In this document: one piece after another, positions 2,385-19,687 of the stretch | How the letters are laid out: every line of letters starts with the position of its first letter | How positions within the stretch are numbered: position 1 is the stretch's first letter | Virus record (IMG/VR): IMGVR_UViG_3300030060_005159 | Location: 1-25,387 of that record | DNA: 25,387 nucleotides | Strand: one strand, 5' to 3' | Source: a virus | Translations under genes and position numbers: made by a program | The notes under the pieces: model-generated | What the model saw: the letters and a program-made list of their open reading frames with translations, nothing else | Told to the model about the DNA's origin: nothing | Database searches by the model: none

Positions 2385-2521
2385 ATATATTAAAAAAATT
2401 TTTAGGTATTGATAAATTAGAATATAAAATTAGGATATTAGAAAGAAAAAATTATTGGAGAGAAAAATACAAACATGTCTTACCTGAACGCAAATCTTCC
2501 ACCAATTTACTGCAAAATTAG
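2378..2521 (+). CDS. Possible 47-aa basic microprotein
   Basis: A short frame starting inside the end of the basic gene before it (ATG at 2378, or 2372 adding two residues) and ending at TAG 2519-2521, overlapping the next gene by 47 bases. The peptide begins MLNILKKFLGIDKLEYKI and is basic and amphipathic. The supporting sign is that its core (KxLG..DKL..KI..L) matches the 33-aa microprotein at 3188, on the other side of the 235-aa gene. No strong ribosome site precedes it and the next gene overlaps it, so it may be non-coding. Confidence 0.35.
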   Translation: MLNILKKFLGIDKLEYKIRILERKNYWREKYKHVLPERKSSTNLLQN

Positions 2522-3182
2522 AAAGGAGTATCTTTATGACTTACAAAAACATCATGGAGAAAGTGAAGACTGTGTTATCTTCGGTCTCACATCAATATCA
2601 GGGCGTGCGCTCTTGTTTAACATCATGTTACCAAACGGTGCGTGCTACTGGCGTTTACCTATATCAGCATTTTATCAAAAAACTTTTGATAGATCCGACG
2701 TGCCAAATATGCAAACGCATGAATTGGAATTGTGGAATTGTTTTAGTTATTGGCCTAGTGTTACTTGTTTTGATTGGCTGGATGGTGTAAAGGGCAAATA
2801 CCTCGGCTTAGACAAAAAATTTTATCATGGTAAATATTTATTTACGATTGATTGGGCACATCCAGACGTTAACATATTGGATACTGAACATTCCGAAATA
2901 CCTCAAGAACATAAGTGTGCACATATATTGGAGCTTGATAACGGTAATTATGCAGCTCAGCCTAATAATCGTCTTTTGTGGCACATTAATAGTTACACTA
3001 CTGATATCAGTTGGCCTGATTACAAAGTCCAAACTACATATTGGGATGCAGAAGATAACAATATGGTTACAGAAGATAGTGATAAAATGTTCTATGAAAT
3101 GAAAGAGATAAAAGACAAAAAAAGAACTTACGAATCCTATAAAGAATTTGCCTCTGATATGTCATTTGAAAATAAGGGTTAA
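2475..3182 (+). CDS. Conserved marine-phage protein, unknown function
   Basis: A 235-aa soluble protein, rich in Trp, Tyr, Cys and His. I recall its opening (LPPIYCKIRKEYLYDLQKHH), its central FTIDWAHPD segment and its HKCAHILELDNGNYAAQPNNR segment as conserved across marine cyanophage and other phage hypothetical proteins, which supports this frame over the alternatives here. The C-terminal 50 residues (WDAEDNNMVTEDSDKMFYEM onward) are acidic, then charged. No catalytic motif can be assigned. The ribosome site is TTGGAG, 14 bases before the ATG. An out-of-frame 84-aa reading frame (2536-2790) with its own Shine-Dalgarno-like AAAGGAG lies inside. Confidence 0.75.
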   Translation: MSYLNANLPPIYCKIRKEYLYDLQKHHGESEDCVIFGLTSISGRALLFNIMLPNGACYWRLPISAFYQKTFDRSDVPNMQTHELELWNCFSYWPSVTCFDWLDGVKGKYLGLDKKFYHGKYLFTIDWAHPDVNILDTEHSEIPQEHKCAHILELDNGNYAAQPNNRLLWHINSYTTDISWPDYKVQTTYWDAEDNNMVTEDSDKMFYEMKEIKDKKRTYESYKEFASDMSFENKG

Positions 3183-4590: not shown

Positions 4591-4796
4591 CCGAGTATGT
4601 TGTAGCTTTACTTATGTTTTGGAACGGAGAGATTAAGGAACACAGAATACAAGACAATATGGCTACATGTTTACGTGCAAAGCGTGTAGCAGAGCGTCAA
4701 TTCAGTGAATCGGTATCCTATAAATGCCTAAAATCTATGGCAGAAACAGAAATTTATTTAGGTGAAAAATCTATAAAAAAACTTATACTTAATTAA
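4587..4796 (+). CDS. Small two-cysteine phage protein
   Basis: A 69-aa protein joined to its neighbours by ATGA (start) and TAATG (end). The N-terminus MTEYVVALLMFWNG is hydrophobic and could be a weak secretion signal; the body has two cysteines (NMATCLRAKR and VSYKCLKSM) about 19 residues apart, which suggests a disulphide-bonded helical hairpin outside the cytoplasm. Similar small proteins occur with the lysis genes of marine phages as I recall. No catalytic motif. Confidence 0.6.
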   Translation: MTEYVVALLMFWNGEIKEHRIQDNMATCLRAKRVAERQFSESVSYKCLKSMAETEIYLGEKSIKKLILN

Positions 4797-5296
4797 TGAA
4801 AATTATAGATAATTTTTTATCTAAAGAAGAATTTAAAGAATTAAAAGATACTATAATATCTGATTCTTTTCCTTTCTATTTTTCAAATTATGTATCTGAC
4901 TCCAGCGAAAAAAAAGACGTTGCTATGTTATATTTTTTACATACTGTTTACACTGGGGGAAACCCCACAAGTGAATGTTTTCCGTTAATTGCTAAAAATT
5001 TACTTTCTAAATTAAATATTTTATCTTTGTTAAGAATAAAAATTAATTGTTACCCCAGAACAGAAAAAATAATATCACACGGTAAGCACAAAGATTTTTC
5101 TAACAATCATAAAGGGGGTATAAACGCAGTATTATTTTCTCTTAATACATGTGATGGATCAACTGTTTTAGAAAATGGAACAGAAGTAAAATCTGTAGCA
5201 AATCGAGCTTTATTTTTTGATTGTATGACTATTCATAATAGTACAAGTTGCACTGATAAAAAGGCAAGATTTAATATAAACATTAATTATTTTTAG
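4796..5296 (+). CDS. 2OG-Fe(II) oxygenase-like protein
   Basis: A 166-aa protein with the iron-binding triad of the 2-oxoglutarate/Fe(II) dioxygenase fold: H98-x-D100 (GKHKD), distal H147 (MTIHNST) and R158 for the 2OG carboxylate, with the jelly-roll strands INAVLFSLNT and RALFFDCM between. Enzymes of this fold hydroxylate proteins, nucleic acids or small molecules using 2OG and O2. The N-terminus (MKIIDNFLSKEEF) is the usual beginning of phage family members. The start overlaps the upstream stop (TAATG) and a sulfotransferase follows after 2 bases, so the two form a pair. It is much more AT-rich than the capsid genes and splits the lysis block, which looks like an inserted cassette. Substrate unknown. 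Confidence 0.75.
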   Translation: MKIIDNFLSKEEFKELKDTIISDSFPFYFSNYVSDSSEKKDVAMLYFLHTVYTGGNPTSECFPLIAKNLLSKLNILSLLRIKINCYPRTEKIISHGKHKDFSNNHKGGINAVLFSLNTCDGSTVLENGTEVKSVANRALFFDCMTIHNSTSCTDKKARFNININYF

Positions 5297-5298
5297 TA

Positions 5299-5883
5299 AT
5301 GTTAATAAACAATAAAGTATATTTTATACACATACCTAGAACTGCAGGTAGATTTTTATTTAATTTATTAGAATTAAATAATCAAACCATTGAAGTTTCT
5401 GATTTTAATATTTTATTTAGAGGAAAAGAATCACCTCATTTAACTTATCCTGAACATTGCTTATATACAAACCATCGTTCTTTAGAAAGATTTTGTATTG
5501 TGAGAGATCCAGTAGATAGATTTATTTCAATGATCAAAGGAAGTTGGTTATTTGATCAAGAAAAAATAGATAAAATGTTTAGTAGCCAAAGCTATTTTGA
5601 TGAAACAGTTAGTAATCTTTGTTTAAATGTTGATGGTAATTGGTTTATACCTCAAATTAATTTTATAGATTATAAGACAAAAATATGGAGGTTTGAAAAT
5701 AATTTAGATAGTAAATTTTTTGATTGGTTGTGGTATAATTTTAATATTAAAATTACCAAATTTAATGATAAACATCATGCTAAAGTTGGAGAATCAAATC
5801 GTAACGATGTTATTTTAAATAGCAAACAAATAGGGTATATTAAAGATTATTATTATAAAGATTATAAAATTTTAAATTATTGA
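5299..5883 (+). CDS. Sulfotransferase family protein
   Basis: A 194-aa protein with the two hallmarks of PAPS-dependent sulfotransferases: an N-terminal 5'-phosphosulfate loop, VYFIHIPRTAGRFLF (residues 7-21), and the 3'-phosphate motif FCIVRDPVDRFISMIKG (65-81). This family moves a sulfo group from PAPS to a hydroxyl or amine on a glycan, protein or small molecule. It follows the oxygenase gene by 2 bases and overlaps the M15 peptidase start (TGATG). One sampled line of the gene is about 17% GC. At 194 aa it is short but both cofactor motifs are present. The target could be a phage or host glycan; this is inference. Confidence 0.75.
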   Translation: MLINNKVYFIHIPRTAGRFLFNLLELNNQTIEVSDFNILFRGKESPHLTYPEHCLYTNHRSLERFCIVRDPVDRFISMIKGSWLFDQEKIDKMFSSQSYFDETVSNLCLNVDGNWFIPQINFIDYKTKIWRFENNLDSKFFDWLWYNFNIKITKFNDKHHAKVGESNRNDVILNSKQIGYIKDYYYKDYKILNY

Positions 5884-12408: not shown

Positions 12409-12996
12409 ATGTCAAATTACGAAGCAACAAGATACGATTTTACTGGAGCAAATCTTACAGGTATCGAGGGTACTGCTACGGGAACTATTTTACCGTGGTC
12501 TTCAGCATCAGTCCCAACTGGATTTTTAGAATGTGATGGATCAGCAGTTTCGAGATCAACTTATTCTGCATTATTCGCAGTCGTTTCAACAACTTATGGA
12601 GTTGGAGATGGGGCTTCTACTTTTAACTTACCAAATTTAGCTGATAATGTTCCAGTAGGAAAATCTAACACTAAAGCTTTAGCATCAACTGGTGGAGCTA
12701 ATACTGTAACTTCAACAGGGAATGTTGCAGGTTCAACAGCTAATGCAACTTTAACAACAGCACAACTTGCATCTCATGCTCATGATGGATTAGTACCTGG
12801 TGGTTCTGGTCATTTTACTAATTATACAACTAACGTACAAACTAGAGGTCCATCATTTACTACACCGGGTGGTAATAAAACTTTAACCACTGGTTCTGGT
12901 TCAGGCCACTCCCATAACATGAGTGCAAACTTTGCCGGAGATGCAACTTCAGTTATACAACCTTATTTAACACTAATTTATATTATTAAGACGTAG
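12409..12996 (+). CDS. Tail collar domain fibre protein
   Basis: A 195-aa protein with a phage tail collar domain at about 26-90: GTILPWSSASVPTGFLECDG, then YSALFAVVSTTYGVGDG and TFNLPNLADNVPVGK. This domain is typical of fibre/collar tips of tailed phages. After it come His/Gly/Ser-rich segments (LASHAHDGLVPGG, SGHSHN) that in fibres often form metal-binding coils, and a final IQPYLTLIYIIKT, the usual end of this family. The GGAG ribosome site sits inside the end of the previous gene. Its likely role is host receptor contact. Confidence 0.8.
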   Translation: MSNYEATRYDFTGANLTGIEGTATGTILPWSSASVPTGFLECDGSAVSRSTYSALFAVVSTTYGVGDGASTFNLPNLADNVPVGKSNTKALASTGGANTVTSTGNVAGSTANATLTTAQLASHAHDGLVPGGSGHFTNYTTNVQTRGPSFTTPGGNKTLTTGSGSGHSHNMSANFAGDATSVIQPYLTLIYIIKT

Positions 12997-13004
12997 GAGA
13001 AAAA

Positions 13005-13361
13005 ATGGCAACTAATGCAAATTGGACAGTAATATTTGATGATAAAAAAATTATAAAACAGACAGGAGAATATAGTCCTCGTGCTTTTGATATTGACGAT
13101 GATGCTTTTTGGAATGATTCTAAATGGTCTAATATTTGGGCTATTCAATATGTGAGTGATAATTTAGACCATATGGATACTGTAGAACATAGAGACACTA
13201 CTCCACATAAATCTTGGAACCAAGCAGAATTAGGTGATTTTAGTTCTCAATTTATATCTAGATGGGATGCAGAGCTTTTGAAAGAGTTACAATTGAGTTG
13301 GGATGAAGACTCTAGAGATGAATCTGAAAAAGGCGCAAGACCTACTTCTTATTCTTCATAA
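13005..13361 (+). CDS. Small acidic phage protein after fibre genes
   Basis: A 118-aa protein after AGGAG. It is acidic and Trp-rich (NWTVIFDDKKIIKQ, FWNDSKWSNIWAIQYV), ending in a charged helical region. I recall similar proteins following fibre genes in marine phages but with no known function; a fibre-assembly chaperone would fit the position. Its stop lies 13 bases inside the convergent oxygenase gene on the other strand, so the two coding ends overlap and no terminator separates them. Confidence 0.55.
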   Translation: MATNANWTVIFDDKKIIKQTGEYSPRAFDIDDDAFWNDSKWSNIWAIQYVSDNLDHMDTVEHRDTTPHKSWNQAELGDFSSQFISRWDAELLKELQLSWDEDSRDESEKGARPTSYSS

Positions 13362-13855
13362 TCCTTTATAAATAAAGTAGCCGTATACCTTTTAAGATTA
13401 GGTATATTACTAGCATGTGGAGAATGAAATTTATCTGAAGGAAAAATTATCCCTCTATTTTCTCTAAATCCTACATGAATATCTAATTGTTGTTCTGTAT
13501 AAAATACAGTTCCATTTGTGACCGCAGTGGGACCAGCTATCATTATTAAAATATTTATTTTTGCTCCTTCTTTTATGTCAATGTGTGGTTTAAAAGTATC
13601 TAAATTTCTTTGATCAATACCACAATTATTTTCATCTATTTTTTTTATTTTTATTTTAAATTTTAATTCAGCTTGTTCTATAAATAATTTTAATAAATTG
13701 GGTTCATTTTTTAATTTCCACTGATTACCATAAAAACTTTTTTTATTTTTTTCTTTATTGTTATATGCAGGTGTATAAAATGCTTTGGTTAGAGCAAAAT
13801 TTTTTACTGCTTCAAAATCTTTTTTGTTAAAAAAGTCATCTATAATTCTAATCAT
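13349..13855 (-). CDS. 2OG-Fe(II) oxygenase-like protein
   Basis: A 168-aa protein and the last of four minus-strand genes. Ligands: H91-x-D93 (KPHIDIKEG), distal H144 (or H147, KFHSPHASN), and R156 (NLKRYTATLF) for 2OG. The start MIRIIDDFFNKKDF is the usual opening of phage family members and resembles the gene at 4796. It begins directly after the stop of the upstream gene (TAAATG). The very AT-rich sequence and position between a fibre-region gene and the nozzle gene suggest an inserted cassette. Substrate unknown. Confidence 0.7.
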   Translation of the reverse strand: MIRIIDDFFNKKDFEAVKNFALTKAFYTPAYNNKEKNKKSFYGNQWKLKNEPNLLKLFIEQAELKFKIKIKKIDENNCGIDQRNLDTFKPHIDIKEGAKINILIMIAGPTAVTNGTVFYTEQQLDIHVGFRENRGIIFPSDKFHSPHASNIPNLKRYTATLFIKDYEE

Positions 13856-14344
13856 TTAATTTTCTTTCGTAGTGTTAAAAGATATTATTAACCTCTGTTC
13901 ATCTTTTTTTAAAGATCGTACTTCATGAGGAGTCATTGAGGGAAACATTAATAATGTATTTTTTTTAAATTTATGCTGATATACATTATTAAACAAACTA
14001 TCGTAAAAAACAGTTGGACTAGGTTCTAGCCCATCCAAATAAATTATTCCTGAATAAACTGACCCATAATGACAGTGAACAATATGTTTATTGTTACTAT
14101 TATAAAATTGAGCCCAATTATTTTTTAATATTAAATTATGTTTTTCTAAAATGTTAATTATTTGTTTTTTTAAATTTTTTAAAATAGGAAAATTCAAAAT
14201 GTTGAAAGAGTCAAAAGTGCTTTTTTTATCTTTAGTTTTTTCATTTTTAATTAAAATTAAAACTTGATTAATTTCCTCTGTTGTTATTTTAACTTTATAT
14301 TCATAAAACAAATGCTCATGTAAAAAAGGATCAAATTTATTCAT
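13856..14344 (-). CDS. 2OG-Fe(II) oxygenase-like protein with HxH motif
   Basis: A 162-aa protein (168 if the upstream ATG at 14362 is used; 14344 is preferred because its ATG overlaps the upstream stop as TAATG). The fold pattern is that of the TIGR02466-like group: WAQFYNSNNKHIVHCHYGS with H90-C-H92 in place of the usual H-x-D, then SGIIYLDGL, NTLLMFPSMTPHEV with H140, and R151-LIISFN. The second ligand position is His rather than Asp, as I recall for this subgroup, so the iron site may differ from the other five. It is the third gene of the minus-strand run; one sampled line of it is about 20% GC. Confidence 0.6.
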   Translation of the reverse strand: MNKFDPFLHEHLFYEYKVKITTEEINQVLILIKNEKTKDKKSTFDSFNILNFPILKNLKKQIINILEKHNLILKNNWAQFYNSNNKHIVHCHYGSVYSGIIYLDGLEPSPTVFYDSLFNNVYQHKFKKNTLLMFPSMTPHEVRSLKKDEQRLIISFNTTKEN

Positions 14345-14937
14345 TATCTTAACATCATCCAAGATGTCAAAATATATTTTTCACCTGACAAAGGTGGATT
14401 GCCTCTATGTAGATATGGAAAGCCAGATGGCCATATAACTATTCTACCTGTTTTTGGTTTGACTCTTTTTGAAAAATGTAAAAATTCTGTTTCTCCACCA
14501 TCTTCAACATCATTTAAATATACAGAAAATACAAAAGCACGGGGCTCATTATTATAACCTGCACCATGTTCTATATGCCAAACATGATATCCTTCAGTTG
14601 GTAAAGTTTTTTGTATTTTTAAATCGGTCAATCGAAAAGGAACTCCGTAAGCCTCATTTGCGCCAATGTTTTCTGCATAATGTTTAAAAGCCATTTCATA
14701 ATTAAATATTAAACTTTTTAATTCGTCCCACCATACTTTAATATTAAAAGGAGCTGCGAAAAATTGTTGATCTTGTTTTTTAAGTATTGACGCTTTTTCA
14801 AAACCTATTCTATTAACAGTTTTATTAAATTTGTCTTGGTCTTCAAACAGTTGAATAGCTTTTTTACATTCCTCTTCTGTAATATAATTATCGTATACAC
14901 CAATAAAATTGTCTATGTTAACTGTTTTTTCCTTCAT
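14344..14937 (-). CDS. Prolyl 4-hydroxylase-like 2OG-Fe(II) oxygenase
   Basis: A 197-aa protein closest in pattern to P4H-type enzymes: YHVWHIEHGAGY with H121-x-E123 as metal ligands, the strand AFVFSVYLNDVEDGGETEF, distal H177 in PYLHRGNPP, and K187 where P4Hs use Lys to bind 2OG. The Glu in place of Asp is a recognised variation in phage homologues, as I recall, but deserves testing. P4H-type enzymes act on peptidyl proline or other protein residues, which would fit modification of a virion or host protein. Starts 30 bases after the previous gene and its stop overlaps the next start. Confidence 0.75.
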   Translation of the reverse strand: MKEKTVNIDNFIGVYDNYITEEECKKAIQLFEDQDKFNKTVNRIGFEKASILKKQDQQFFAAPFNIKVWWDELKSLIFNYEMAFKHYAENIGANEAYGVPFRLTDLKIQKTLPTEGYHVWHIEHGAGYNNEPRAFVFSVYLNDVEDGGETEFLHFSKRVKPKTGRIVIWPSGFPYLHRGNPPLSGEKYILTSWMMLR

Positions 14938-14967
14938 TAATATATTTTTCTACAATAATTATTTGTT

Positions 14968-15483
14968 CTATTCAACCTTTCTATCATAAGCGTGTTCTCT
15001 ATTAGGACCGTTTTGATCTACATAATGAAAAAAAACTTGTGCCATTCCTTCACCTTTATAAACTCCAGGACGACCATGTTTTTGATCACACCCTGCATAT
15101 AAAACTGCATCTCCCTCTTTAATTTCAAAAGATTCATCTTCTACAGTAATAGGCCAGTTATCATATTTTTTTATACAAGCAGTTACACTTATTTCACAAG
15201 CAGGTCTATCAGAGTGTTTAGATAGGGTTGCTCCAAAAACATAATATCTCCAATAAGCATAGGTTGGAAATAATTTTAGATTAGATTGTTTTTCTACTAT
15301 AGGTAATTTTATATCTAATAAAGAAGTCATGAGTGGATCTTGATACCAAGCGGGAGAAAAAGATTGAATGTCTAATTCATAGTCTTTGTTTTTATCAAGC
15401 TTATTAAAACAATATTTTTGAAGAATTTCTAATTCTTGTTGTTTAAAAAAATTTTTAATTAATTTATATTTTACTTTAACCAT
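14968..15483 (-). CDS. 2OG-Fe(II) oxygenase-like protein
   Basis: A 171-aa protein, second in the minus-strand run, overlapping the first gene by 13 bases. Motifs: H90-x-D92 (LSKHSDRPACEISV), H136 (CDQKHGRPG) and a following FFHYVDQNG strand. The usual Arg about ten residues after the distal His is not obvious, K143 being the nearest candidate, so 2OG binding may differ. Strands around ITVEDESFEIKEGDAVLYAG fit the jelly-roll. It is a different subgroup from the other three, judged by the WRYYVFGATL and GMAQVFFHY segments. Confidence 0.65.
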   Translation of the reverse strand: MVKVKYKLIKNFFKQQELEILQKYCFNKLDKNKDYELDIQSFSPAWYQDPLMTSLLDIKLPIVEKQSNLKLFPTYAYWRYYVFGATLSKHSDRPACEISVTACIKKYDNWPITVEDESFEIKEGDAVLYAGCDQKHGRPGVYKGEGMAQVFFHYVDQNGPNREHAYDRKVE

Positions 15484-16016
15484 GCAACAATACTATACCT
15501 TGTCCCTTTCGTAATAGGTTGAATACCATGTGGATAAATAAAATTACTAGGAAAAAAAACTATAGAACCTTTATTTAATTTTAATCTTTTAATTTCTTTT
15601 TCTTTTTGATCTGTAAAAATTAAATCTCCACCTTCGTATTCACTGTTTAAATTTAAAATAACACTTAAATGTCTAGATAGAGCTGAATGATGGTCTGTAT
15701 GAATTTCATATTTACCACCTGGGTTATATTTTAACAAATCTATTTGACCAATTACTGAACTCGTTATTCTTGGAAATTTACTTTTATAAAAAATATAAAG
15801 TCTTTCTATTTCCGTTTTTATAAAGTTCCAATAAAATAAATTAGTTGGAGTTTCTAGATTTAAACGATAGCCTTTTACATTTCTCACATTTTTATCTAGA
15901 CCTCCAAATGTTGTTAAATTTTTTGATGCTTTTTTATTTATTAAGGGTATTATTTTTTTTATGAATTCGTCAGAAATAACATTTTTAATTTCAACTACTG
16001 CCTCTAAATGATCCAT
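15471..16016 (-). CDS. Canonical 2OG-Fe(II) oxygenase (P4H-like)
   Basis: A 181-aa protein and the first gene of the minus-strand run. All four key residues are in place: H106-x-D108 (YEIHTDHHS), H163 (IYPHGIQP) and R173 (GTRYSIVAWL), with HLSVILNLNSEYEGGDLIF and KGSIVFFPSNF between, the hallmark of the P4H/2OG-Fe(II) group. An AGGAT ribosome site precedes the ATG. Probably transcribed leftwards from the intergenic region at 16017-16097 through all four genes to 13349. The substrate could be a protein residue, but this cannot be read from sequence. Confidence 0.8.
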   Translation of the reverse strand: MDHLEAVVEIKNVISDEFIKKIIPLINKKASKNLTTFGGLDKNVRNVKGYRLNLETPTNLFYWNFIKTEIERLYIFYKSKFPRITSSVIGQIDLLKYNPGGKYEIHTDHHSALSRHLSVILNLNSEYEGGDLIFTDQKEKEIKRLKLNKGSIVFFPSNFIYPHGIQPITKGTRYSIVAWLK

Positions 16017-16097
16017 ATAATTTATCCTTTTGAAGCTCCTTTTATACTACATTTACAAAGTATTTAAATAACATTCTTTCTAGGGTATAATACCCAT
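16017..16097. promoter_or_regulatory. Divergent intergenic region with small hairpin
   Basis: The 81 bases between the start of the minus-strand oxygenase run and the plus-strand nozzle gene. It contains GGGTATAATACCC (16083-16095), a 5-bp stem with a TAA loop that includes a TATAAT hexamer, 2 bases before the nozzle ATG; no good -35 lies at standard spacing. On the minus strand a TATAAA lies before an AAGGAG. It is the natural place for promoters of both directions, but neither is certain. Confidence 0.35.
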
Positions 16098-18248
16098 ATG
16101 CCTTTAACAAATGTACAAATTAGACCTGGTTTTAATAAACAAGTTACACCTGCTGGAGCTGAAGGTCAGTGGACAGATGGTGATTTTGTTAGATTTAGAT
16201 ATGGGCTCCCAGAAAAAATTGGTGGTTGGGAACAAATAACAAACTCTACATTTTGTGGAGCTGCTCGAGATCAATTACAATGGGCTGATTTAGATGGTAG
16301 AAGATATGCCGCTATTGGCACTAATAAAGTTTTGTTAATATATTTTGAAGATTCTTTTTTCGACATAACTCCATTAGATACAGCTATAACTGGCGCAACA
16401 TTTACTACTGTAAATACAAGTCCAACTGTTACTGTTAACAAAATAGCTCATGGGTTTTCACCAGGAGATTTGTTTACTTTTACTTCAGTCACACCACCAA
16501 GTGGTGCTGGATATTCCTCTTCCGATTTTGAAACAAATACTTTTCAAGTTGTTACTACACCGTCTTTAGATACTTTTACTATTACTATGGCTTCTAATGC
16601 GGGAACAAGTGTTTCAGCTAGTGGTGCAGCTACAATAAACCCTTACGTTAAAGTAGGACCATTAAGTCAGACATCAGGATTTGGTTGGGGCACAGCGCAA
16701 TGGGGTGGAGGTTCTGGAATTATAACAACTTTGAACGGTGCACTTTTAGATGACACCGCTGGAACTGGAGGTTCAGGTACCTCAATTACATTAACGTCTG
16801 TTGTAGGTCTACCAACTTCTGGAACTATAAAAGTAGGTGCAGAATTTATTTCTTATACTGGAATTTCTTCTAATAATTTAACAGGGATAACAAGAGCTGT
16901 CGCTGGTACAAGATCTGCCCATAGTGATGGTGCTTCAGTAGAAGCTTTTACAGCTTGGGGAAATGCTAGTCTATCTGGAGGGGTTACATTAGATTCGGCA
17001 TCTTGGTCTTTAGATCATTTTGGATCTAAATTAATTGCAACAATAAAAAATGGAAAAACTTTTGAATGGGATACTGTAAGTACTACTCCTGGAGCTTTGA
17101 CTACTAGAGCCACTGTTGTAAGTGGAGCCCCAACAACTTCTGTTATGTCTATTGTTTCAGAAAGAGATAGACATCTAGTAATGCTTGGCACTGAAACAAC
17201 AATTGGAACAACTACTTCACAAGATAAAATGTTTATTAGATTTTCTGATCAAGAAGATATTTCTGATTACGCTCCTACTTCAGTAAATACAGCAGGAACT
17301 TTTAGAATAGATTCAGGAACTAAAATTGTAGGAGCCGCTAAAGGTAAAGATTATATATTGATCCTTACTGACACTTCAGCATATGTAATGCAATTCGTAG
17401 GTCCACCATTTACTTTTTCTATAAGACAAGTGGGAAGCAATTGTGGAGCTATAGGTCAACATTCAATAAAATATGTAAACGGTGCAGTTTGGTGGATGGG
17501 TCAATCAGGAGGATTTTTTGTTTACGATGGTACTGTTAAATCTGTTCCATGTTTAGTAGAAGATTTTGTATTTACAGATAAAGGAGATAACCTAGGTATA
17601 AGTTATGGTAATGGTGAACAAGTTTATGCAGGTCTTAATAGTCTTTATGAAGAGGTAAGTTGGTTCTATCCAAAAAGTGGTTCTGCATTAATAGATAGAG
17701 TTGTAACTTATAATTATGCTGAACAAACTTGGACAACTGGATCATTATCTAGAACAACATGGAATGATGCAACATTATATGACAAACCATATGCAACTGA
17801 ATTTAATTCTACAAACATACCATCATTTCCAACAATACAAGGCGTTACAAATATTAATGGTGCTTCTATTTATTACGCACACGAAGTTGGTAATAATCAA
17901 GTTGATTCTTTAGGTGCTAAAACTGCCATACCTGCTTTTATTCAATCAGGAGATTTTGATTTATCTCAAGGTGGAGATGGTCAATTTTTTATGAGCATGA
18001 GAAGATTTATTCCTGACTTTAAATTGATTACTGGAGATGCACAAGTGACTATAAATTTAAGAAGATTTCCTGCTGACACTGCATCATCCTCGCCTCTCGG
18101 ACCTTTTACAATAAATAGTACAACAGAAAAAGTAGACACAAGAGCCAGATCAAGGTTCGCTAGTATAAAAGTTGCAAATACCTCCACTGATCAGAATTGG
18201 AGATATGGAACTTTTAGGGCAGACGTACAACCAGATGGTATGAGATAA
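16098..18248 (+). CDS. Tail nozzle-like protein (P22 gp10/T7 gp12-like)
   Basis: A 716-aa, beta-rich protein. The opening RPGFNKQVTPAGAEGQW then DGDFVRFRYGLPEKIGGWEQ is the usual beginning of podovirus tail stabilisation/nozzle proteins. Residues 110-180 look like an Ig-like domain (TVTVNKIAHGFSPGDLF), 194-205 carry a Trp-Gly motif (GFGWGTAQWGGG), 210-284 are the beta module also found in the gene at 8179, and the rest has beta-propeller-like units such as RHLVMLGTETT, DYILILTDTSAYVMQF and GAVWWMGQSGGFFVYDG. It would close the tail below the adaptor. The strong ribosome site is missing; the ATG sits beside the hairpin at 16083. A small gene follows by TAATG. Confidence 0.7.
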   Translation: MPLTNVQIRPGFNKQVTPAGAEGQWTDGDFVRFRYGLPEKIGGWEQITNSTFCGAARDQLQWADLDGRRYAAIGTNKVLLIYFEDSFFDITPLDTAITGATFTTVNTSPTVTVNKIAHGFSPGDLFTFTSVTPPSGAGYSSSDFETNTFQVVTTPSLDTFTITMASNAGTSVSASGAATINPYVKVGPLSQTSGFGWGTAQWGGGSGIITTLNGALLDDTAGTGGSGTSITLTSVVGLPTSGTIKVGAEFISYTGISSNNLTGITRAVAGTRSAHSDGASVEAFTAWGNASLSGGVTLDSASWSLDHFGSKLIATIKNGKTFEWDTVSTTPGALTTRATVVSGAPTTSVMSIVSERDRHLVMLGTETTIGTTTSQDKMFIRFSDQEDISDYAPTSVNTAGTFRIDSGTKIVGAAKGKDYILILTDTSAYVMQFVGPPFTFSIRQVGSNCGAIGQHSIKYVNGAVWWMGQSGGFFVYDGTVKSVPCLVEDFVFTDKGDNLGISYGNGEQVYAGLNSLYEEVSWFYPKSGSALIDRVVTYNYAEQTWTTGSLSRTTWNDATLYDKPYATEFNSTNIPSFPTIQGVTNINGASIYYAHEVGNNQVDSLGAKTAIPAFIQSGDFDLSQGGDGQFFMSMRRFIPDFKLITGDAQVTINLRRFPADTASSSPLGPFTINSTTEKVDTRARSRFASIKVANTSTDQNWRYGTFRADVQPDGMR
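16725..16949 (+). repeat. Beta module copy 2 (shared with adaptor-like protein)
   Basis: Codons 210-284 of the nozzle-like gene carry TLNGALLDDTAG, SGTIKVGAEFISYTG, NLTGITRAVAG and AHSDGASVEAF. They align with codons 95-160 of the gene at 8179. Both copies sit as insertions inside tail proteins, suggesting a portable surface domain. Confidence 0.6.
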
Positions 18249-18412: not shown

Positions 18413-18759
18413 CCATTAGATATAAAAACCAAGGTTTTAAACAAGCTAGTACAGGTAAGACTACAGTGCTTACATGTCCAAATGATGCAACATTAATTAT
18501 TAAAAGTGTTTATTGTGCAAACAATGATGCTTCTTCAGCTATTGTAGTAAACATGAATTTAGTAGACTCTTCTGATTCAAGCACAGAGTATGAATTTTTT
18601 AGAGATGATTTAGCTGCTAAATCACAAGTTAATTCTACCCCTCAAGGTTTAAATTTAGAAGCAGGTGATGCAATAACAGTACAAGCAGCTACAGGAAGTA
18701 GTAAAATACAAGGTGTAATAAGTTATGCACTTATAGACCGATCACAGGAAAATGGATAA
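18409..18759 (+). CDS. Small beta-rich virion protein
   Basis: A 116-aa protein with alternating beta stretches (TTVLTCPNDATLIIKSVYC, AIVVNMNLVD, TEYEFFRDDL, AGDAITVQAATG, KIQGVISYALI). It overlaps the following oxygenase gene by 8 bases and the previous gene by ATGA. The size and strand pattern resemble the protein at 1736. Likely a small head or tail decoration subunit; not assigned to a family. Confidence 0.6.
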   Translation: MTIRYKNQGFKQASTGKTTVLTCPNDATLIIKSVYCANNDASSAIVVNMNLVDSSDSSTEYEFFRDDLAAKSQVNSTPQGLNLEAGDAITVQAATGSSKIQGVISYALIDRSQENG

Positions 18760-19366
18760 TAAAAAAATAAATTATAAATTTTTTTATTGGGGTCCTTTTT
18801 TATATAAAACAACTCTAAATGAGGAAGAGATACAAAAAATAAAAAATTTATGTAATAAAAAAGGTGAAGATGTTAGAGCCAAACTAGCTGGGCTGATGAA
18901 TCAGGAATATAAACTCAATCGTAAAAAAATTTTTAAAATAATTGCTCCTTACTTACAAAGTTATTTACAAGCATATGTAGAACATTACGGAAAATTTGTT
19001 TCACCAAAGATAGAACTGACATCTGCTTGGGTTAACTATATGACTAAATATGAATCTAATCCTCTTCACCACCATGAAGAAGATTTATCTTTTGTTTTAT
19101 TTCTTAATGTGCCAGAAAAATTAGAAGAAGAATATAAAACCAGAAAAAGTACAAGCAAACCAGGCGTTATTAATTTTATGAATAAATTACAAGAGGATGA
19201 TATGTATCTTAACAGCCATAGTTTTTTTCCTAGAGTTGGTGATTTTTATATTTTCCCTGCTAACTTACCACACTACGTTAATGGTTTTAGTTGTGATGGA
19301 GAAAGAATATCTGTATCTGGTAATGTTAAATTTCATACACCTAAAAAGAAAAAATTAAATGGCTAG
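18752..19366 (+). CDS. 2OG-Fe(II) oxygenase-like protein with HHHEE cluster
   Basis: A 204-aa protein of the phage TIGR02466-like/2OG-Fe(II) type. The metal-binding stretch is ESNPLHHHEEDLSFVLFLNV, giving H106-x-H108 or H107-x-E109, followed by GDFYIFPANLPHYVNGF with distal H174 and ERISVSGNVKF with R185 for 2OG. Residues 122-150 are a charged insertion. The start overlaps the previous gene by 8 bases and the end overlaps the next start. It is the only 2OG-like gene outside the two other clusters and sits just before the glycosyltransferases, so it may act in the same pathway. Whether the HHHEE cluster binds iron in the usual way is unclear. Confidence 0.65.
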   Translation: MDNKKINYKFFYWGPFLYKTTLNEEEIQKIKNLCNKKGEDVRAKLAGLMNQEYKLNRKKIFKIIAPYLQSYLQAYVEHYGKFVSPKIELTSAWVNYMTKYESNPLHHHEEDLSFVLFLNVPEKLEEEYKTRKSTSKPGVINFMNKLQEDDMYLNSHSFFPRVGDFYIFPANLPHYVNGFSCDGERISVSGNVKFHTPKKKKLNG

Positions 19367-19487
19367 ACAAAAATTTGTACATTTTGTGCCTAGACCAAAG
19401 CCTCGTAAACGGCCTCGTAGACATAAAAAAAGTCTTTCAAAATCAGAAAAAAGATCGTATAAGAAATATAATCGACAAGGGAGATAA
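19359..19487 (+). CDS. 42-aa extremely basic protein (RPRRHKKSLSKSEKR)
   Basis: ATG at 19359 lies inside the end of the oxygenase gene and the frame ends at TAA 19485-19487, just before the next ATG. 18 of 42 residues are Arg or Lys (for example PRKRPRRHKKSLSKSEKRSY). I recall this peptide as a conserved small gene in marine phages. The charge suggests nucleic-acid or capsid binding. Confidence 0.6.
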   Translation: MARQKFVHFVPRPKPRKRPRRHKKSLSKSEKRSYKKYNRQGR

Positions 19488-19489
19488 TT

Positions 19490-19687
19490 ATGAACGATAT
19501 ACCAAAAATACCAGTTGAAGCAAAAGAAATAATTAAAAATAAAAGAACAGGAAAAATATACGCTAGTAAAGATGATTTTGATTCTGATGTTGCTGATCCC
19601 AATACTGATACTACTGCAGATGACTTTAGACAAGATTTGGAAGTTAAAGTAACAAGAGTAACGTTAGGTGCAAAGACTAAAAAATAA
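19490..19687 (+). CDS. 65-aa acidic small phage protein
   Basis: A 65-aa protein with a GGGAGA ribosome site; charged, with no membrane segment. The stretch KIYASKDDFDSDVADPNTDT, then DDFRQDLEVKV, is a pattern I recall as conserved in marine phages. It follows the 42-aa basic protein by 2 bases and precedes the GT-B gene by 3. The acidic nature next to a very basic peptide could mean pairing, but nothing proves it. Confidence 0.6.
   Translation: MNDIPKIPVEAKEIIKNKRTGKIYASKDDFDSDVADPNTDTTADDFRQDLEVKVTRVTLGAKTKK

What the first reader, a model, noticed from the sequence alone, without database searches (positions are those of the whole stretch)
13349..16016. Four consecutive minus-strand 2OG-Fe(II) genes interrupting the tail module
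Four oxygenase-like genes lie head to tail on the opposite strand to every other gene, with joins of TAAATG, TAATG, a 30-base gap and a 13-base overlap. Each has a different active-site version: canonical HxD...H...R (15471), HxD with no clear Arg (14968), HxE with Lys (14344), HxH (13856), HxD...H...R (13349). Tandem expansion of one gene should give similar copies; these instead look like different subfamilies collected together, a possible stepwise or multi-target modification operon inserted as one block.
Basis: partly seen in the sequence, partly recalled or inferred. Interest (0 to 1): 0.7.

Follow-up and report, generated by a model that had tools for sequence, protein, structure and literature searches.

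The report
Shuffled oxygenase operon in pelagiphage tail
Viruses of the ocean's commonest bacteria carry, backwards between two tail genes, a small operon of iron-dependent oxygenase genes that keeps one member constant and swaps the others from virus to virus; it probably tailors a protein or surface involved in attachment, but the target has not been shown.

Summary
Confirmed with one correction: there are five minus-strand genes at 13349-16016, not four. All five look like 2OG-Fe(II) oxygenases. They belong to five old, separate clades (about 22-27% identity to each other) and are under purifying selection. The 14968 gene belongs to a family labelled 'ferrochelatase' in phage databases. Its conserved HxD...H motif and predicted fold show a prolyl-hydroxylase-like oxygenase instead. 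The window is an HTVC023P-type pelagiphage. In 100 complete loci with the same flanks, oxygenases always fill the gap; they are wholly antisense in 89, in 69 different gene strings. An independent search by the flanking gene gave 65 complete loci, none empty, and the third gene (g3) in 65 of 65. Loci with 95-99% identical nozzle proteins differ in block content in 26 of 28 pairs. Some blocks add carbamoyl-, sulfo- or methyltransferases. So the block is a gene-by-gene turnover site around a constant core, not one inserted unit. Oxygenases beside 'ferrochelatases' in these phages were already published (Wittmers 2022). I found no report of the relabelling, the constant antisense core or the transferases in the papers I searched and read. 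The target is unproven; my first choice is the neighbouring collar-domain fibre protein.

The parts
15471..16016 (-). g1, first gene of the operon: 2OG-Fe(II) oxygenase, PF13640, HxD...H...R
   Evidence: Pfam 2.8e-18; motif conserved 128 of 128
14968..15483 (-). g2: phage 'ferrochelatase' family (phrog_2954), here reassigned to the 2OG-Fe(II) oxygenase fold; overlaps g1 by 13 bases
   Evidence: phrog_2954 2.6e-42; H90, D92, H136, R138, Q149 invariant; model pLDDT 95.1; PKHD/P4H/PHD2 folds
14344..14937 (-). g3, constant core gene: 2OG-Fe(II) oxygenase PF13640 with HxE...H...K
   Evidence: Pfam 2.5e-11; in 65 of 65 complete flank-query loci; 79% identical to HTVC027P gp73
13856..14362 (-). g4: 2OG-FeII_Oxy_5 (PF13759), HxH version; start may be ATG 14344
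   Evidence: Pfam 5.9e-10; HxH in 18 of 18; orthologue in HTVC027P gp72, 60%
13349..13855 (-). g5, last gene: diverged 2OG oxygenase, HxD...H...R
   Evidence: Pfam only below cut-off; H91, D93, H144, R156 invariant; model pLDDT 93.6; HIF prolyl hydroxylase fold
16017..16097 (.). divergent gap: TATAAT (16086-16091) six bases before the nozzle ATG, preceded by TTTAAA at 16063; operon start on the minus strand
   Evidence: consensus match only, promoter scan as a whole not above chance
13005..13361 (+). up118: short conserved gene at the 3' boundary, tail-to-tail overlap of 13 bases with g5
   Evidence: overlap with the last block gene in 71 of 88 loci
12409..12996 (+). collar-domain tail fibre protein (PF07484), proposed substrate
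   Evidence: Pfam 3.3e-21; divergence tracks that of g3
16098..18248 (+). nozzle/stabilization-like virion protein, 5' boundary
   Evidence: phrog_3287 2.4e-86; 63% and 56% identical to HTVC023P and HTVC027P
18752..19366 (+). oxB: further 2OG oxygenase (PF13759); its family occurs inside the block of relatives
4796..5296 (+). oxA: further 2OG-type gene, 2 bases before a sulfotransferase (5299-5883); its family occurs inside the block of relatives

Best explanation
The block is an antisense operon of small prolyl-hydroxylase-like 2OG-Fe(II) oxygenases, set in the tail module just upstream of a gene (nozzle) that appears to have its own promoter, so that gene gain and loss there does little harm. 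One gene, g3, is constant; g1 and g2 form a translationally coupled pair; the others come and go, presumably by recombination among related phages. I infer that the enzymes hydroxylate side chains of the phage's own distal fibre (collar-domain) protein during assembly. In a minority of phages, carbamoyl-, sulfo- or methyltransferases of the same operon would cap such hydroxyls, so the phages vary the chemistry of an attachment protein by swapping enzymes. Shown: fold (predicted), motifs, conserved place and strand, turnover, gene overlap, transferase families. Inferred: activity, hydroxylation as the reaction, the collar protein as target, effect on attachment.
For: Fold and motif. Purifying selection, dN/dS 0.13-0.42. 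g3 occurs in 65 of 65 complete loci found by the flanking gene up118. In the nozzle-query set it occurs in 4 of 4 loci with collar/up118, against 2 of 35 without them. g3 divergence tracks collar divergence (rho 0.33, p 0.002, 105 loci; 0.26, p 0.002, 97 single-collar loci) but not nozzle (0.045 and 0.011), nor up118 in single-collar loci (0.02), although up118 lies between them. g1-g2 overlap by exactly 13 bases in 112 of 118 adjacent pairs, and are one 362-aa protein in cyanophage ACG-2014f. Group-transfer families in 26 of 101 blocks (Pfam). Related arrays beside tail or neck genes in HTVC008M (antisense there too), Mosig and S-CAM8.
Against: No substrate or activity is known. Block content as a whole hardly correlates with collar, up118 or nozzle sequence (rank r 0.058, 0.073, 0.059, 108 loci), and g1, g2 and g5 do not track the collar, so most of the enzymes show no match to the fibre. 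The fibre and collar proteins have little proline (0.7-7.9% in nine proteins) and no collagen-like Gly-X-Y run, except one short run in a lysine-rich protein. g4 (HxH) and g2 (no Arg) may be inactive or use another cosubstrate. The collar-g3 test is exploratory: 28 comparisons, no tree correction. Some cyanophage relatives of g2 lie among replication genes (P-SSM7), not tail genes.
Confidence: 0.42

Rival explanations
1. The enzymes act on the host: they hydroxylate, and the transferases cap, a host surface glycan, lipid or protein, changing the receptor (for example to keep rival phages out) or host translation.
For: NodU-type carbamoyltransferase, sulfotransferase and methyltransferase families commonly act on sugars (recalled). 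The g2 model resembles a bacterial P4H solved with EF-Tu (4iw3). A glycosyltransferase family (GT311) lies downstream of nozzle in many relatives.
Against: The constant core gene goes with a tail-protein module and its divergence follows the collar protein, which host targeting does not predict.
Confidence: 0.23
2. Host metabolism: the genes draw on or set 2-oxoglutarate, iron or haem pools (auxiliary metabolic genes, with g2 a true ferrochelatase).
For: The published reading: oxygenases with partner ferrochelatases (PMC9599517); HTVC027P infection raises host iron-transport genes (PMC12753301, passages read); 2OG-level regulation is suggested in PMC9602691 (passages read).
Against: g2 has the oxygenase fold and motif, and no ferrochelatase model was listed for it or for ten relatives at E up to 1. 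Pool control does not explain five different enzymes, their swapping or the tail site.
Confidence: 0.12
3. DNA hypermodification: oxygenases hydroxylate bases in phage DNA and the transferases decorate them.
For: TET/JBP-type phage oxygenases exist (recalled); PHROG labels of DNA endonuclease on phrog_274 and phrog_2297; thymidine hypermodification genes occur in some HTVC023P-type clades (PMC9599517).
Against: The window proteins match PF13640/PF13759 and PHD/PKHD folds, not Tet_JBP (PF12851 only below cut-off in two cyanophage proteins). Up to nine different enzymes beside tail genes are not needed for one base change.
Confidence: 0.08
4. A tolerated cargo site: genes accumulate because the place upstream of a self-promoted gene is neutral, with no joint function.
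For: Fast turnover (26 of 28 close pairs differ), content almost independent of flanks, a conserved promoter-like element at the boundary whatever the first gene (74 of 101 loci, 16 classes of first gene, unassigned counted as one).
Against: Low dN/dS in all five, no empty site in 100 and in 65 complete loci of this type (the two sets share contigs), a preferred gene order (681 of 796 pairwise orders), and mostly oxygenase content.
Confidence: 0.1

Closest known systems
2OG-Fe(II) oxygenase plus 'ferrochelatase' partner genes of HTVC023P-type pelagiphages (Wittmers et al. 2022, PMC9599517; abstract, passages, section 7 and part 1 of section 10 read)
   Same: Same phage group, same gene kinds; they report eight non-orthologous oxygenases, often near one or two ferrochelatases with varying order.
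   Different: They take the ferrochelatase label at face value, call the oxygenases frequently nearby but not adjacent, and judged trees not feasible. In the sections I read there is no antisense block, constant core or transferases.
HTVC027P gp72-gp74 (MN698241)
   Same: Same place, same strand, orthologues of g4 and g3 in the same order with the same kind of overlap.
   Different: Three genes; first gene gp74 is another PF13759-type oxygenase; no g1, g2, g5 in the block.
HTVC008M oxygenase block (KC465899, Kyanoviridae, with T4-like neck and tail sheath genes)
   Same: Five overlapping genes on the strand opposite to the neck and flanking genes: g1-like, g4/G-like, G-like, g3-like, g2-like.
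   Different: Unrelated flanks and phage family; different gene order; sequences far diverged.
Cyanophage 2OG oxygenase sets (S-SCSM1, 24 genes; PMC9602691, passages read)
   Same: Many diverged PF13640/PF13759 oxygenases in one phage, functions not investigated.
   Different: The passages read describe no single operon or antisense site.

Membership tests
2OG-Fe(II) oxygenase superfamily (g1, g3, g4) | profile match above curated cut-off | tested here: met
   PF13640 67.1 and 44.8 bits, PF13759 39.9 bits, cut-off 27
2OG-Fe(II) oxygenase superfamily (g2, g5) | profile match above curated cut-off | tested here: not met
   g2 no such Pfam match; g5 PF13640 16.8 bits, cut-off 27
2OG-Fe(II) oxygenase superfamily (g2, g5) | double-stranded beta-helix fold with HxD...H | tested here: met
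   models pLDDT 95.1 and 93.6; best PDB matches are 2OG oxygenases; H, D, H invariant in alignments A2 and A3. So g2 and g5 are filed by fold and motif, not by profile
2OG-Fe(II) oxygenase superfamily (all five) | 2OG-anchoring Arg or Lys after the distal His | tested here: inconclusive
   Arg in g1, g4, g5, Lys in g3; g2 has invariant Gln there
2OG-Fe(II) oxygenase superfamily (all five) | Fe- and 2OG-dependent oxidation | not testable with these tools
   needs purified protein
Ferrochelatase (label of phrog_2954 and GenBank records) | match to a ferrochelatase profile | tested here: not met
   no such Pfam model listed at E up to 1 for g2 or for ten g2 relatives, eight of them from named phages with the label
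Ferrochelatase (label of phrog_2954 and GenBank records) | ferrochelatase fold | tested here: inconclusive
   not among listed structural matches; the 50 listed are 2OG oxygenase-type folds spanning most of the chain
Collagen-type prolyl 4-hydroxylase (g3) | HxD...H with Lys ten residues on (recalled) | tested here: not met
   H177 and K187 fit, but Glu replaces Asp in 124 of 125
Recent tandem duplicates | neighbours closer to each other than to genes of other phages | tested here: not met
   tree and identities

The most novel reading that the evidence does not exclude
These phages run a combinatorial tailoring system for their attachment apparatus: a constant hydroxylase plus an exchangeable set of hydroxylases and hydroxyl-capping enzymes (carbamoyl, sulfate, methyl) writes a phage-specific chemical pattern on the fibre protein, so that receptor binding diversifies by swapping enzymes, not by mutating the fibre. 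The same design has arisen or been passed on in T4-like pelagiphages.
Probability: 0.25. Interest if true: 0.88.

Novelty: new variant of a known kind. Interest (0 to 1): 0.66.

Why it matters
[quoted passage not shown] 2OG oxygenases are frequent unexplained genes of marine phages; one paper says their viral functions had not been specifically investigated (PMC9602691, passage read). A constant core gene tied to one tail module, in a group with a culturable member (HTVC027P), turns 'what do they do' into a test on one protein pair. Correcting the 'ferrochelatase' label would remove a false lead about haem from many phage records (156 match g2) and from a published AMG interpretation.

Tried and rejected
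Recent tandem duplication: rejected. Ferrochelatase for g2: rejected on fold, motif and lack of a profile match; its absence from the structure lists alone would prove nothing. Antisense ORF artefact: rejected by family matches and dN/dS. The minus ORF 19355-19633 as a second antisense gene: it looks like a shadow. I first thought the nozzle promoter was an answer to the antisense block; the same TATAAT-N4-8-ATG also stands in 41 of 71 loci whose upstream neighbour is in sense, so it is a general feature. Content-flank Mantel tests gave nothing strong. Collagen-like repeats in window fibre and neighbouring proteins: no run of four or more Gly-X-Y units in 8 of 9 proteins, one short run in a lysine-rich protein. 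up118 has no good PHROG match in 25 members and only HTVC027P among phage records. PDB sequence search with g2 gave weak matches only, nearly all to calcium-binding proteins. Expression timing of HTVC027P gp72-74: the parts of the paper I read do not give it. Bacterial relatives of g2: two lie near what I read by eye as an NRPS-like gene (L269) and a peptidase-domain exporter (L280), not scanned with profiles.

Limits of counts: loci were fetched by block genes, so their content is biased towards g2, g3, g4 and g5; only searches used flanks. Lists are the best 80 of about 600 or more matches and of 450, and several contigs recur between searches (165 loci reduce to 132 non-redundant). Family labels come from HMMs I built from single seeds. 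Four loci (L004-L007) were left out of the counts; HTVC027P (L005) is included in the 101. I removed near-copies before the tests (128 to 105). Not every block gene was scanned with Pfam; families A, C and the diverged g5 kin are below Pfam cut-offs.
Full report
WHAT THE WINDOW IS. The record is a 25,387-base virus contig. Its nozzle-like virion protein is closest to the pelagiphages HTVC023P (63%) and HTVC027P (56%) among 27 matching phage records, and other structural genes such as the capsid and collar protein match HTVC027P. So this is an HTVC023P-type podovirus of SAR11.

WHAT IS THERE. Five minus-strand genes, 15471-16016 (g1), 14968-15483 (g2), 14344-14937 (g3), 13856-14362 (g4) and 13349-13855 (g5), run head to tail between up118 and nozzle, both on the + strand. 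g1, g3 and g4 pass Pfam cut-offs for 2OG-Fe(II) oxygenase families; g2 and g5 do not. g5 has invariant H91, D93, H144 and R156 in an alignment of 39, and its model (pLDDT 93.6) is closest to HIF prolyl hydroxylases. g2 has invariant H90, D92, H136, R138 and Q149 in an alignment of 47, and its model (pLDDT 95.1) matches PKHD-type oxygenases, viral collagen prolyl hydroxylase, bacterial P4H and PHD2, with Z 14-17 over about 143-163 of 171 residues.

THE 'FERROCHELATASE'. g2 belongs to phrog_2954 (2.6e-42). 156 phage records match g2, and most listed rows carry the ferrochelatase label. None of ten g2 relatives shows a ferrochelatase profile in Pfam at E up to 1; the two long ones show PF13640 in their C-terminal part. 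PHROG 3531 matches g2 in its first half and g1 in its last third, and cyanophage ACG-2014f has both in one 362-aa CDS. In the loci collected here the two genes overlap by exactly 13 bases in 112 of 118 adjacent pairs, and g1 is the upstream neighbour of g2 in 118 of 147 cases. The rest have another gene there, mostly an oxygenase of family G or D. The label is best read as a database error; g2 is an oxygenase-fold partner of g1.

NOT DUPLICATES. Pairwise identity among the five is 22-27%. In a tree of 108 rows and 13 oxygenase groups, g2, g3, g4 and g5 are each one supported group and g1 needs two changes, with one origin not ruled out. Long branches make deep joins unsafe. dN/dS against the nearest relatives is 0.13-0.42 in all five (NG86, four pairs per gene).

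SAME PLACE IN RELATIVES. Of 139 loci with both boundaries, I counted 135, leaving out four phage records. 100 have collar/up118 upstream: 89 with all oxygenases antisense to the flanks, 11 mixed, none without. 35 have only the fibre genes upstream: 19 sense, 14 without oxygenase, 1 mixed, 1 antisense. The 100 hold 69 different gene strings, and the window's occurs once. An independent scan with up118 gave 80 loci, plus the window: 65 complete, 15 ending at the contig end, 1 other. Of the 65, 61 are antisense and 4 mixed; none is empty; there are 36 different strings; g3 is in 65, g1 in 34, family F in 34, g2 in 22, D in 11, g5 in 10, g4 in 4. In the nozzle-query set 12 of 39 complete loci have the fibre gene directly beside nozzle.

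TURNOVER AND ORDER. Among pairs of loci with 95-99% identical nozzle, 26 of 28 differ in block content; at 99-100%, 0 of 7. Order is not free: 681 of 796 pairwise orders follow the commoner direction, roughly 1-2-F-3-5 in the direction of transcription. Genes are packed: 332 of 347 neighbours overlap or lie within 10 bases. A 28-29 base element, CTTTCAT...TATATAA, stands before nozzle in 74 of 101 loci with 16 classes of first gene (unassigned counted as one), and once in each of 120 loci that have it. The window has another allele of this gap, with TATAAT six bases before the nozzle ATG. This fits exchange between conserved edges, which is inference.

OTHER ENZYMES. 26 of 101 blocks (12 of 65 in the flank set) hold a gene of a group-transfer family: NodU-type carbamoyltransferase (also split in two genes), sulfotransferase-like, methyltransferase or a putative glycosyltransferase. 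Some of these labels rest on weak or no Pfam matches: ST1 and GT249 had none and were named by eye, ST3 was below cut-off. They lie in the first third of the operon in 23 of 30 cases. One locus adds an APS-kinase-like gene (7.2e-12) near a sulfotransferase-like gene (L089).

OTHER PHAGES. HTVC027P has g4, g3 and another oxygenase in the same place and strand. HTVC023P has oxygenases in sense, elsewhere in the tail module and just before nozzle. In HTVC008M, a Kyanoviridae pelagiphage with T4-like neck and sheath genes, a g1-like, a g4/G-like, a G-like, a g3-like and a g2-like gene overlap each other on the strand opposite to the neck genes. Mosig has a similar array between tail fibre and neck genes, and S-CAM8 between a carbamoyltransferase and a tail fibre gene. 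P-SSM7 is a counter-example, with the g2 relative among replication genes.

WHAT IT DOES. The constant partner of the collar/up118 module is g3. Across 105 loci, g3 and collar distances correlate (rho 0.33, p 0.002, the floor of 500 permutations); g3 with nozzle 0.045 (p 0.29); g3 with up118 0.12 (p 0.018). In 97 single-collar loci the values are 0.26 (p 0.002), 0.011 and 0.02. Collar also correlates with nozzle (0.26), so linkage or shared history is not excluded, and only family F among the four accessory genes tested follows the collar (0.42); F follows up118 (0.54) and g3 (0.71) even more. Content as a whole does not follow the flanks. I therefore put the fibre protein first, at 0.42, with host surface, metabolism, DNA and neutral cargo as rivals.

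WHAT WAS KNOWN. Wittmers et al. 2022 (PMC9599517) described eight non-orthologous oxygenases in these phages with adjacent 'ferrochelatases' and varying order. In the parts I read I saw no antisense block, constant core, transferases or relabelling. My paper searches over an open-access library listed no paper that, by title, abstract start or the passages I opened, describes this block; subscription journals are mostly absent from it. Passages only were read of PMC12753301 (plus section 12), PMC10149686, PMC9146016, PMC9602691, PMC10504331, PMC11598899 and PMC11094077. The place of HTVC027P gp72-74 is visible in its GenBank record.

Noticed in passing
4796-5883: A 2OG-type gene (labelled DNA endonuclease V in PHROGs) is followed after 2 bases by a Sulfotransfer_2 protein (PF03567, 4e-05): a possible hydroxylate-then-sulfate pair.
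   Followed up: partly
4796-5296 and 13349-13855: PHROG names 'DNA endonuclease V' (phrog_274) and 'DNA endonuclease' (phrog_2297) cover proteins that here look like 2OG oxygenases; the names look wrong, like 'ferrochelatase'.
   Followed up: partly
2475-3182: Protein of phrog_3704 labelled ferredoxin (1.3e-77) has no Pfam match at E up to 0.1; another doubtful label.
   Followed up: no
16060-16098: Nozzle seems to have its own promoter with TATAAT five to six bases before the ATG, suggesting a leaderless mRNA; seen in many relatives whether or not the neighbour is antisense.
   Followed up: partly
L150, L204, L240, L303 (blocks of relatives): NodU-type carbamoyltransferase split into N- and C-terminal genes, N gene first in 5 of 5 counted blocks.
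   Followed up: no
19490-19687: Conserved 65-aa + strand ORF (59 tblastn matches) between oxB and the glycosyltransferase; the overlapping minus ORF seems its shadow.
   Followed up: partly
L263 (GTDB contig labelled Maricaulis): A bacterial-bin contig carries what look like g1, g2, a methyltransferase and g3 against an up118-like gene: a more diverged block, most likely a phage contig in the bin (by eye).
   Followed up: no
L269 and L280: Bacterial relatives of g2 lie near what looks by eye like an NRPS-like gene (Rhizonema bin) and a peptidase-domain exporter (Luteibacter), which would fit peptide hydroxylation.
   Followed up: no
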